A stretch of 21,304 nucleotides of DNA, taken from a virus. Position 1 is the first letter of the stretch. Each line of letters starts with the position of its first letter. The stretch lies in IMG/VR virus record IMGVR_UViG_3300027582_000020, positions 1 to 21,304 of that record; one strand, given 5' to 3'. The translations under genes and the position numbers were made by a program. The notes under the pieces are model-generated. The model was given only the letters and a program-made list of their open reading frames with translations, made no database searches and was not told where the DNA came from. Positions 430 to 3,306 of the stretch are shown one piece after another.

Positions 430-587
430 TATTTCTCTGCTTTTAATAATTCCTTGAATGCGCTTTCAAGTCGTGTTTTGTTTGTGCCATCAGCCTTCAT
501 CCATGCTTCGATGAGTGCTGTTTCGAACCCACCTGCAAAGGGTAGCCTTGCATTGAGTCTGTCGTATTGTTCTTGTGGTCTGTTCAT
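429..587 (-). CDS. Small phage protein, 52 aa
   Basis: A 52-codon frame starts at ATG 587-585, three bases after a perfect copy of the AAATCTCAAT leader element (591-600), which is the main reason to call it real despite its size. Its stop overlaps the start of the following 107-aa gene (TAATG). The product has a central helical stretch (FETALIEAWMKADG) and a charged, probably helical C-terminus (RLESAFKELLKAEK). It is the first gene after the structured RNA at 612-969, so its mRNA may begin at or near the 3' end of that RNA. Function unknown. Confidence 0.7.
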   Translation of the reverse strand: MNRPQEQYDRLNARLPFAGGFETALIEAWMKADGTNKTRLESAFKELLKAEK

Positions 588-590
588 GTA

Positions 591-600
591 ATTGAGATTT
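591..600 (-). promoter_or_regulatory. AAATCTCAAT leader element, copy 1
   Basis: On the minus strand AAATCTCAAT is followed by TAC and then the ATG of the 52-aa gene. The wider context TCAAAATCTCAATTACATG is shared with the 130-aa gene. It is not a Shine-Dalgarno sequence. By its fixed distance of 3 nt from ATG it probably acts in translation initiation or as an RNA or protein binding site in the leader (inference). Confidence 0.7.
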
Positions 601-638
601 TGAAAGAAAAGTACCCCCTACTTATAGGTGAGGGGGTA
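600..638 (-). terminator. Strong GC hairpin with T-rich tail before the 52-aa gene
   Basis: On the minus strand TACCCCC and GGGGGTA (plus 632-638 and 612-618) form a perfect 7-bp stem around a 13-nt loop, followed by CTTTTCTTTC. The shape fits an intrinsic terminator closing the structured RNA. The T run is interrupted, however, and a gene with a leader element starts only 24 nt beyond the hairpin. It may therefore be leaky, or it may be a 3'-end or processing hairpin and not a full stop. Confidence 0.5.
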
Positions 639-969
639 AAACCCTGAGATGTATTTGCCAGTCCGCCACGATTTATGCGGAAGCCCATCTCTCGGCTCGG
701 TTCGTAAGGACGATGTTTAGGTTTCTCTCCCATCGGTGCAAGCCTCGTACTCCACAGCTTACACCACACGCAGTGGTCTTCATGGTGATTTGTAACACCG
801 CCCAATGTAGCGATAGTGGGGATTGAACCCACCTTCAACCGTGTCCGCCCCTCCGCCGAGGTTATCGAAGGCTGTCCCTGAATTTTAAAGGTAAGCTAAG
901 CCCACCAAGACCTTCGAAGCGAATCGTTGCCGATGCCGTCCCCTGTATTCATGCAGGGTCATTATCGCT
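612..969 (-). ncRNA. Candidate structured RNA with tRNA-like T-arm and acceptor stem
   Basis: This 360-nt gap between the 130-aa and 52-aa genes holds no convincing protein gene but many consecutive perfect stems. At the 5' end AGCGATA (969-963, minus) pairs with TATCGCT (815-809). Directly before the latter is a canonical T-arm, GTGGG-TTCAATC-CCCAC (832-816), and an A in the discriminator position (808); CCA is not encoded. About 164 nt separate the two acceptor strands, against about 73 nt in a normal tRNA, and no D-arm or anticodon arm is evident. Other stems (plus coordinates): 941-945/954-958, 865-871/911-917, 763-767/773-777, 737-743/757-763, 711-715/731-735, 646-651/686-691, 662-666/677-681, and the 612-638 hairpin. 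It could be a tmRNA-like molecule, a tRNA relic fused to another structured RNA, or a new phage RNA class. I recognise no known family. Confidence 0.5.
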
Positions 970-977
970 ATGTATGT

Positions 978-1370
978 TTATGACAGGAAGTCAGTGATGC
1001 TGTCCTGTGCATTCTCGATGCGTTGCTCTTGCAAGTCGTTTGCATCACGCAACTTTTTTGCAAACCACAACTTGAACTCCATCATATCCTCACCATGACA
1101 ACCCCATGAGCCATTCTTGATGACGCTTCTGCGGCGTCCGTTCTGATCGTACATGACGAGGAAGGCATATATATATGGAGCGCATCTTGCACCGCCCTCT
1201 TCGATTCGATACTCGATAGCTATCTTGACTTGCCTCTTTCCGAACTCATTGCGGTGAGGTAGTAAGGTGTTTGTGAGTATGGACTTGTAATTGTCAGGGT
1301 TAGTTCCGATTACTTCTAGTCTGTCCCATGCACCTAGCAAGTGGGTCAATGTGTTGTGTGTACATTTCAT
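978..1370 (-). CDS. Phage hypothetical protein, 130 aa
   Basis: The chosen start (ATG 1370-1368, MKCTHNTLTHLL...) lies 3 nt after a perfect AAATCTCAAT element and downstream of a good promoter at 1406-1437. A longer in-frame start 66 nt upstream would lie inside that promoter and translate the leader, so it is rejected. The 130-aa product has a basic centre (FGKRQVKIAIEYRIEEGG), a strand-turn region with three cysteines over the protein, and a charged helical C-terminus (FKLWFAKKLRDANDLQEQRIENAQ). It is followed by the structured RNA at 612-969 in the same transcription unit. No domain is recognised and the function is unknown. Confidence 0.75.
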   Translation of the reverse strand: MKCTHNTLTHLLGAWDRLEVIGTNPDNYKSILTNTLLPHRNEFGKRQVKIAIEYRIEEGGARCAPYIYAFLVMYDQNGRRRSVIKNGSWGCHGEDMMEFKLWFAKKLRDANDLQEQRIENAQDSITDFLS

Positions 1371-1373
1371 GTA

Positions 1374-1383
1374 ATTGAGATTT
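1374..1383 (-). promoter_or_regulatory. AAATCTCAAT leader element, copy 2
   Basis: A perfect copy ends 3 nt before the ATG of the 130-aa gene, inside the leader expected from the promoter at 1406-1437. The flanks AATCAAAATCTCAATTACATG resemble copies 1 and 4. Confidence 0.7.
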
Positions 1384-1405
1384 TGATTAGTGCCGATTGG
1401 CTTTG

Positions 1406-1437
1406 CAAAGATACAACATTTAAACCCTGTTGTCAAG
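1406..1437 (-). promoter_or_regulatory. Bacteroidota-type promoter for the 130-aa gene and downstream RNA
   Basis: On the minus strand CTTG (1437-1434) is separated by exactly 20 nt from TATCTTTG (1413-1406), matching the Bacteroidota sigma-factor consensus TTTG-N19-21-TAnnTTTG with one mismatch in the upstream box. The interval also shares TTGACA and AATGTTGTAT with the promoter at 2642-2673, which suggests duplication of the same early promoter. Confidence 0.75.
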
Positions 1438-2706: not shown

Positions 2707-3306
2707 TCAGAGCCATCGGTTTCGGATGGTCACCCAGATGACAGCCTGCAACTCGTAAGGCTTGTACCCCATGCTCCGTGCCAGCTTGCAGAAGTGTGCG
2801 CTCAGTCGGTCGTATTGCAGGGGCGTTACGCTTGTCTGTACGTCCTTGGGTGTCTGCGATGTAGTCACGAAGGCACGAAGCATCCACTTGTCAATCGTAA
2901 CAACAGACTCATCCATCATACCCACATTGAGAGCGAAAGCGTGAGTTTTTCTAGCCTTTCGGAGCATTTCGATATCTCCACTCAAGATCGCCCACGCTCT
3001 GCGCTTGTTGTTTGTGTATGTGCATACCTTGACAGACTCCATGGATTCACCATTCACGAAGGCTTGGATGAGATTGAATGCATCAATCTTGTTGCGCTCC
3101 CACTTGTTGTTGGGTGAGAGTGCGCTGATGACTGCAGCAGCCACGACCTTGGATATGTTGAACGTTACCGATAGGTACTCAGCAAACTCCATGGCTGAAG
3201 CATACCACGCTTTGCCTTCGCGGATTTCTTCCTCCGTCGCACGCCCCGTCCACGATTTAACGTGAGCGGTGACGCGCTTCAGTGGGTATGTGCTTAGGCT
3301 AATCAT
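2707..3306 (-). CDS. DUF7178-like phage protein, 199 aa
   Basis: ATG 3306-3304 overlaps the stop of the preceding basic protein (ATGA), so the two are translationally coupled. The 199-aa product matches the pattern I know for an uncharacterised phage and actinobacterial family annotated as DUF7178. It has WYASA near residue 34, AAVISALSPNNKWERN (about 57-72), KTHAFALNV (about 120), VTIDKWMLRAF (about 135-145), a helical LTP-type segment, and a C-terminal YELQAVIWVTIRNRW. The layout of helices around a conserved SP-x-x-x-W and an invariant D-K/V-W/H recalls helix-hairpin-helix base-excision proteins, but I do not claim an activity. Role in DNA metabolism is inference. Confidence 0.75.
   Translation of the reverse strand: MISLSTYPLKRVTAHVKSWTGRATEEEIREGKAWYASAMEFAEYLSVTFNISKVVAAAVISALSPNNKWERNKIDAFNLIQAFVNGESMESVKVCTYTNNKRRAWAILSGDIEMLRKARKTHAFALNVGMMDESVVTIDKWMLRAFVTTSQTPKDVQTSVTPLQYDRLSAHFCKLARSMGYKPYELQAVIWVTIRNRWL

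What the first reader, a model, noticed from the sequence alone, without database searches (positions are those of the whole stretch)
612..969. Large structured RNA with a canonical T-arm and a 7-bp acceptor stem but no tRNA body
A T-arm matching the GTTCRANNC rule and a perfect acceptor helix enclose about 164 nt with no D-arm or anticodon arm. A further 200 nt of consecutive stems follows, ending in a strong hairpin with a T-rich tail. The locus lies between two genes of one transcription unit, and the next gene carries the leader element linked elsewhere to new 5' ends, so the RNA is probably processed. It could recruit RNase P/RNase Z, act like a tmRNA, or be a new phage RNA family.
Basis: partly seen in the sequence, partly recalled or inferred. 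Interest (0 to 1): 0.7.

Follow-up and report, generated by a model that had tools for sequence, protein, structure and literature searches.

The report
Phage RNA with tRNA-shaped ends
A marine phage carries an unannotated gene for a roughly 160-base RNA that has the two ends of a transfer RNA but a different body, much like the still unexplained "RNA C" of phage T4, so the same trick seems to have arisen in unrelated phages.

Summary
Real, on the minus strand, 969-808 (162 nt, unit A): a 7-bp Watson-Crick acceptor, discriminator A73 and a canonical T-arm enclose about 130 nt without D-arm or anticodon arm. ARAGORN and Rfam miss it. In 574,551 bases of related contigs, 32 T-arm/acceptor pairs are 21 tRNAs, 8 copies of A and 3 of another tRNA-like RNA (T2); shuffles give 0.5. 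A occurs in 10 of 16 contigs of one crAss-like phage lineage and is more conserved than 4-fold sites of the neighbouring gene; seven distinct copies keep all pairs, but covariation is weak. The other 196 nt are separate modules (E, H) of a shuffling RNA cassette.

It is not a tmRNA. Closest known: phage T4 RNA C (species 1 RNA), function unknown, with the same tRNA-like ends (covariation shown here) around an unrelated body. Best reading: a stable phage RNA whose ends are made by host tRNA-maturation enzymes; processing, stability and function are inferred. T2 has a different 6-nt palindrome in the same loop in each of three variants, suggesting homodimers.

The parts
808..969 (-). Unit A: predicted mature tRNA-capped RNA, 162 nt to discriminator A73
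   Evidence: coordinates; homologues in 10 of 16 contigs, window included; pair counts
963..969 (-). Acceptor stem, 5' strand AGCGATA
   Evidence: sequence; pairs with 809-815; kept in all 7 distinct copies
808..815 (-). Acceptor stem, 3' strand TATCGCT plus discriminator A73
   Evidence: sequence; followed by C74, as after A73 in the phages' own tRNAs
816..832 (-). T-arm GTGGG-TTCAATC-CCCAC; among homologues the T-loop varies only at positions 57, 59 and 60
941..958 (-). Hairpin P2 CCCTG-CATGAATA-CAGGG in the D-arm position, no D-loop GG
   Evidence: consensus fold
918..937 (-). Hairpin P3, ATCG-GCAA-CGAT core with GNRA-type loop, invariant
865..917 (-). Stem P4 (TTCGAAGG with CCTTCGA) enclosing P5
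890..906 (-). Hairpin P5 GGTGGGC-TTA-GCTTACC; C-G replaced by U-A in G003 and G009
850..861 (-). Hairpin P6 CCTC-GGCG-GAGG
708..803 (-). Module E: separate structured RNA closed by 10 bp (GGGCGGTGTT with AACATCGTCC)
   Evidence: also in G007 and, in part and without A, in G012; fold z -2.8
612..707 (-). Module H: multi-stem segment ending in hairpin TACCCCC...GGGGGTA (638-612)
   Evidence: fold z -3.3; in no other contig searched
603..611 (-). T-rich tail CTTTTCTTT after the terminal hairpin
   Evidence: sequence
585..601 (-). Leader motif AAAATCTCAATTACATG at the start of the next gene
978..1436 (-). Upstream gene (ORF 152 aa; likely ATG at 1370 after the leader motif); stop codon 8 nt before unit A
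   Evidence: 35% identical homologue beside a tRNA-like element in L099
429..587 (-). Downstream gene, 52 aa
   Evidence: weak PHROG match of unknown function

Best explanation
Unit A is a discrete, roughly 162-nt non-coding RNA of a crAss-like marine phage that uses a natural tRNA 'cap'. The acceptor stem plus T-arm form the minihelix that host tRNA-maturation enzymes recognise. RNase P would cut before A1 (base 969), and RNase Z or exonucleases plus the CCA-adding enzyme would finish the 3' end at A73 (base 808), excising the RNA from the operon transcript and protecting its ends. The roughly 130-nt multi-hairpin body, not an adaptor function, is the working part, most likely binding a host or phage factor in trans. 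It works like T4 RNA C and like engineered tRNA scaffolds. Shown: the ends, the consensus fold, conservation, lack of a coding frame, recurrence, modular setting. Inferred: transcription, processing, stability, trans action.
For: T-arm plus perfect acceptor far beyond chance. Eight complete and two contig-truncated copies in 16 contigs, window included. T-loop variation only at R57, N59, Y60, and stem changes keep pairing in 300 of 300 cells; slid controls 35-51%. A is more identical than 4-fold sites of the adjacent gene in 28 of 28 (non-independent) pairs. Stops and 1-2-nt indels speak against a protein frame. The sequence after A73 (C, then variable) matches that after the same phages' tRNAs. 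Parallel: T4 rnaC has T-arm CCGGG-TTCGAAT-CCCGG and acceptor CGATTCG/CGTTTCG, its annotated ends lie within 1-2 nt of the acceptor ends, and both helices covary across five phages. T4 RNAC is a late RNA of unknown function, validated by northern blot (PMC9697503, passages). RNAs built on a tRNA acceptor with T- and D-arms are processed and stable in E. coli (PMC3753655, passages).
Against: No transcript, end-mapping or phenotype data. Covariation inside A is thin (one double change). Folding energy is barely unusual, and the window copy's minimum-energy fold does not form the T-arm. U(-1) could pair with A73, which may shift RNase P cleavage. A is absent in relatives whose slot between the genes is fully sequenced (G012, G013), so it is dispensable. 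The high identity may partly reflect exchange of the cassette by recombination.
Confidence: 0.62

Rival explanations
1. Cis-acting processing signal: the tRNA-like fold exists mainly to make RNase P / RNase Z cut the polycistronic mRNA between two genes, so the upstream and downstream messages get new ends; the released RNA is a by-product.
For: It starts 8 nt after the stop of the upstream gene and lies before a gene with its own leader motif. The cassette keeps its place between genes although modules change.
Against: A bare minihelix or normal tRNA would do; the body holds the most conserved helices of A (P2, P3, P4 and P6 never vary), which a mere cut site does not need.
Confidence: 0.17
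2. Decoy or mimic of tRNA: the RNA titrates a host enzyme that binds acceptor/T-arm, for example a defence tRNA nuclease, a synthetase or EF-Tu.
For: In all five tRNA-like classes found (A, F, F', G, T2) the 3' acceptor strand ends in GCT, which none of the 21 tRNAs of these contigs does; T2's acceptor and T-arm hardly change while its body does (1 of 32 end columns variable against 18 of 50 body columns, Fisher p 4e-4).
Against: No defence-related family among ten window proteins. The conserved body of A is unexplained by an acceptor-only decoy. No synthetase identity set and no host tRNA was tested.
Confidence: 0.15
3. Degenerate tmRNA or decayed tRNA gene, kept by neutrality or exchange.
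For: tRNA ends present; a related phage (phi38:1) has a true tmRNA; elements F and G have imperfect acceptors.
Against: Acceptor and T-stem are intact in all full copies; A is more conserved than 4-fold sites; no tmRNA-model match at E up to 10; no tag frame.
Confidence: 0.04
4. Chance resemblance in an untranscribed or unprocessed spacer.
For: Weak folding-energy z-scores.
Against: Shuffle controls and recurrence.
Confidence: 0.02

Closest known systems
Phage T4 RNA C (species 1 RNA, rnaC; NC_000866 70908-71046)
   Same: Phage-encoded RNA of 139 nt; canonical T-arm and 7-position acceptor enclosing a non-tRNA body; missed by ARAGORN and Rfam; ends conserved by covariation while the body diverges; function unknown (PMC9697503, PMC3014915, passages).
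   Different: No sequence similarity found; T4 acceptor has two central U-U mismatches; lies in a tRNA cluster of a T4-type phage of enterobacteria; RNA C is a proven transcript, unit A is not.
tmRNA (RF00023)
   Same: T-arm and acceptor closing a larger RNA; a real one occurs in the related phage phi38:1.
   Different: Unit A lacks G3-U70, the D-loop-like consensus, a tag frame and any model match.
Engineered tRNA scaffold RNAs (PMC3753655, passages read)
   Same: Foreign RNA held within a tRNA acceptor and T-arm, stable in the cell.
   Different: Artificial; retains the D-arm.
mascRNA/menRNA (RF01684)
   Same: tRNA-like RNA cut from a longer transcript; T2's T-arm and acceptor give a sub-threshold match, 16.6 bits against a cut-off of 42.5.
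   Different: Eukaryotic; unit A itself gives no match.
GOLLD and ROOL phage RNAs (PMC12286853, passages read)
   Same: Structured phage RNAs of unknown function, often near tRNAs, that form homo-oligomers with kissing loops (compare T2's palindromic loop).
   Different: Far larger; no tRNA ends known to me; no Rfam match here.

Membership tests
Canonical tRNA | 7-bp acceptor stem and 5-bp T-stem with TTCRANY loop | tested here: met
Canonical tRNA | D-arm with GG loop and anticodon arm with 7-nt loop | tested here: not met
   consensus fold; no ARAGORN or Rfam tRNA match
tmRNA | tRNA-like 3' end (T-arm, acceptor) | tested here: met
tmRNA | G3-U70 alanine identity pair | tested here: not met
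   pair 3-70 is C-G (U-G in G008)
tmRNA | conserved tag reading frame | tested here: not met
   no frame kept among homologues; stops and 1-2-nt indels
tmRNA | match to Rfam RF00023 or ARAGORN tmRNA | tested here: not met
   positive control in phi38:1 found
T4 RNA C (species 1 RNA) | phage RNA of about 140-160 nt with T-arm and acceptor around a non-tRNA body | tested here: met
T4 RNA C (species 1 RNA) | homologous sequence | tested here: not met
   no phage record matches 580-1000 even in distant mode at E up to 1, although T4-type records are in that collection; bodies differ
T4 RNA C (species 1 RNA) | discrete stable transcript | not testable with these tools
   needs RNA from infected cells
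Bacterial Y RNA (YrlA-type) | Ro/Rsr-binding stem and tRNA-like module | tested here: inconclusive
   no Rfam match up to E 10; the Ro-binding stem was not examined; family features recalled
GOLLD/ROOL | match to the Rfam models | tested here: not met

The most novel reading that the evidence does not exclude
Unrelated phages (T4-like and crAss-like) independently keep a class of tRNA-capped trans-acting RNAs: interchangeable RNA bodies plugged into a tRNA acceptor/T-arm handle, collected in a shuffling cassette, some (T2) forming homodimers through a palindromic kissing loop, and together serving counter-defence or host takeover. This would give T4's long-unexplained RNA C a general role.
Probability: 0.25. 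Interest if true: 0.82.

Novelty: new variant of a known kind. Interest (0 to 1): 0.6.

Why it matters
T4 RNA C is matched in 718 of the 50,697 phage records searched and its function is still called unknown in a 2022 paper (PMC9697503, passages). Finding the same architecture, with unrelated bodies, in crAss-like marine phages suggests a recurring strategy: phage RNAs that borrow tRNA maturation for stable ends. ARAGORN and Rfam do not see them, and the search used here (T-arm plus acceptor at any distance up to 260 nt) finds them with almost no background, so the class can be surveyed and tested.

Tried and rejected
Plus-strand reading: no better than shuffles. Known RNA families: none for these RNAs at gathering or at relaxed thresholds. 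tmRNA and plain tRNA: rejected (membership test). Protein-coding reading: rejected. One 358-nt RNA: rejected, modules A, E and H occur separately. Wider homologues of A: three pattern scans of viral contigs and two scans with the neighbouring protein stayed within one lineage; the phage collection gave nothing. The single genome-contig scan used a T2 pattern, not A; its five hits lack tRNA ends. Function through the neighbouring upstream protein: no Pfam, PADLOC or PHROG family at the thresholds used (a relaxed Pfam search gave one sub-threshold match, E 0.086, for its L099 homologue); the AlphaFold model is of low confidence (pLDDT 67.5); no fold match at E 0.001 or better. Folding energy as evidence for T2: not unusual (z -0.1 to -0.3). 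Covariation shuffles for T2 are not significant (122 of 500). Host tRNA comparison (does any host tRNA share the AGC/GCU acceptor?): not done. Literature: all ten searches used; I saw nothing in those listings that names tRNA-like RNAs of crAss-like phages or the tRNA-like ends of T4 RNA C; subscription papers, including the original T4 RNA C sequencing papers (recalled), were not available, so the tRNA-like ends of RNA C may already be in print.

Full report
What is there. The finding lies on the minus strand between two small genes (978-1436 and 429-587, both minus). Eight bases after the stop of the upstream gene starts AGCGATA (969-963), which pairs perfectly with TATCGCT (815-809) behind a canonical T-arm (832-816); A73 is base 808. 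Between acceptor and T-arm there are hairpins P2, P3, P4 with P5 inside, and P6, and no anticodon arm. I unit A. ARAGORN and Rfam see only the window's two ordinary tRNAs, and a relaxed Rfam search of the region gives no tRNA or tmRNA match.

Is it chance? A strict T-arm is expected 0.085 times per shuffled window and none of 200 shuffles had one with a perfect acceptor. I fetched 15 related contigs. With the window these make 574,551 bases; the scan found 37 T-arms, 32 with a good acceptor, against 2.9 and 0.5 in shuffles. The 32 are the 21 tRNAs that ARAGORN calls, 8 copies of unit A and 3 copies of another element, T2. The five other T-arms are element F in G002, element G in G008, a copy of A cut by a contig end (G015) and two probably spurious matches in G015.

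Whose genome. The window is an IMG/VR virus record. In the rows listed, its terminase is 41-48% identical to a Manatee Spring phage and to Flavobacterium elemo phages, with Cellulophaga phages among the further matches, and its portal protein matches the same groups. I call the lineage crAss-like; that label for these relatives is recalled, not taken from a call.

Conservation. Unit A is complete in 8 of 16 contigs, window included, and cut by a contig end in 2 more. Across the 8 complete copies it is more identical than the 4-fold sites of the adjacent gene in 28 of 28 pairs, which are not independent; recombination could contribute. In 7 distinct sequences 43 consensus pairs give 300 of 300 paired cells; one pair changes on both sides (C-G to U-A in P5) and five on one side; slid controls pair 35-51%; 23 of 500 shuffles reach the covariation score. 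The support is consistent but modest. The T-loop varies only at 57, 59 and 60, as in tRNA. All three forward frames carry stops in 7 of 8 copies (one frame of G009 is open) and lengths differ by up to 2 nt, so it is not a gene for a protein. Folding energy is only mildly low (z -1.8 to -2.2) and the window copy's minimum-energy fold lacks the T-arm.

The setting is a modular RNA cassette. The same slot holds different modules in different relatives: B (at least 74 nt identical in 7 contigs, with a partial match in an eighth, G002), C (6 contigs), D (7 contigs plus L086 and L099), E (window, G007, part in G012) and H (window only). In all 9 loci with D, D begins within a few bases after a T-arm element (A, F, F' or G). 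D looks like an H-type pseudoknot: CCCACC/GGTGGG, CTGACC/GGTCAG, CTGACT/AGTCAG and CTCACC/GGTGGG in one stem, and CTGGTA/TACCAG against CAGGTA/TACCTG in the other; I read this by eye, where RNAalifold, which cannot draw pseudoknots, gave a different fold. Five of 15 fetched contigs (G002, G004, G010, G011, G015) end inside the cassette, as expected of a variable or repeated site.

Other tRNA-capped RNAs. T2 (82 nt; AGCGGCT/AGCCGCT, T-arm CAGGG-TTCGANT-CCCTG) occurs in 7 contigs in three body variants. RNAalifold places an 8-nt loop at columns 24-31 whose inner six bases are TCGCGA, GTGCAC and CTGCAG: all different, all palindromes, and the only hexamer position palindromic in all three. Eight unrelated matches to the same sequence pattern have none (0 of 8, six distinct hexamers). 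This suggests homodimers by loop kissing. It rests on three variants that share the central GC, the shuffle test of T2's helices is not significant, and its folding energy is ordinary. Elements F (L006), F' (L086, L099) and G (L012) have good T-arms but imperfect acceptors. In all five classes the 3' acceptor strand ends in GCT, which none of the 21 tRNAs of these contigs does.

Closest known. T4 RNA C (rnaC, species 1 RNA) has the same design. In five phages its acceptor and T-stem keep 50 of 50 counted cells paired, with two pairs changing on both sides (A-U to G-C; G-C, U-A, A-U), 3 of 500 shuffles reaching the score, while the body diverges. Two central U-U mismatches, left out of that count, persist; the T-loop is lost in one of the five, ZX14. 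ARAGORN and Rfam also miss it. rnaC is matched in 718 phage records. Its function is called unknown in PMC3014915 (2010) and PMC9697503 (2022; late expression, northern blot); PMC12685909 (2025) reports a convergent mutation in neighbouring rnaD. I read passages of these. Unit A shares no detectable sequence with RNA C, so it works like it without being a member of its family. It is not a tmRNA: pair 3-70 is C-G, there is no tag frame and no model match, whereas phi38:1's tmRNA is found by ARAGORN and by Rfam at 87.6 bits.

Mechanism. Acceptor plus T-arm is the minihelix that RNase P, RNase Z and the CCA-adding enzyme recognise (established knowledge, recalled). The review PMC11143913 lists pre-tmRNA and other tRNA-like RNAs among RNase P substrates (passages), and engineered tRNA scaffolds give stable RNAs in E. 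coli (PMC3753655, passages). I therefore read unit A as a stable trans-acting RNA with tRNA-made ends and a functional body. Its cellular role is open; the leading guesses are a factor-binding RNA, a processing signal, or a decoy for a tRNA-binding enzyme.

Limits. There is no expression evidence; one lineage; few independent sequences; no host genome was examined; metagenome contigs could not be scanned.

Noticed in passing
L007:3994-4075, L085:7451-7532, L089:9331-9250: T2 tRNA-like RNA with three different palindromic hexamers (TCGCGA, GTGCAC, CTGCAG) in the same loop; possible kissing homodimer.
   Followed up: partly
L005:5820-5908, L009:5790-5876, L012:5683-5769, L086:4400-4313: Module D follows tRNA-like elements within a few bases; apparent H-type pseudoknot with both stems changing in compensation.
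   Followed up: partly
L005:5444-5519: Module B: at least 74 nt identical in 7 contigs; structured, unknown.
   Followed up: no
G002, G004, G010, G011, G015 contig ends: Five of 15 contigs end inside the RNA cassette, suggesting a hypervariable or repeated site.
   Followed up: partly
L084 (KC821614.1) 26803-27164, minus: Cellulophaga phage phi38:1 has a tmRNA (Rfam 87.6 bits, ARAGORN) that the record does not annotate.
   Followed up: no
L084 (KC821614.1) about 20818-20677, minus: Odd tRNA-like element with perfect TCCTTAG/CTAAGGA acceptor, T-arm and a long extra hairpin, not called by ARAGORN or Rfam.
   Followed up: no
L082 (MW202828.1) 523-697: Two non-standard tRNA genes (Rfam 47.3 and 37.2 bits) missed by ARAGORN and not annotated.
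   Followed up: no
L101:2047-1909 (T4 rnaC) and L102-L105: T4 RNA C: complementary TTGACG and CGTCAA segments are invariant in all five phages aligned, a possible internal kissing interaction; ZX14 has lost the T-loop consensus.
   Followed up: partly
window 585-601, 1368-1384, 2077-2093, 2313-2329, 2609-2625, minus: Recurring leader motif AAAATCTCAATTACATG, four of five matches ending in the ATG of a small gene; 5 matches against 0.15 expected; perhaps a phage promoter or translation leader.
   Followed up: partly
window 2707-3306, minus: Gene with a DUF7178 domain (Pfam E 4.8e-36), function unknown.
   Followed up: no
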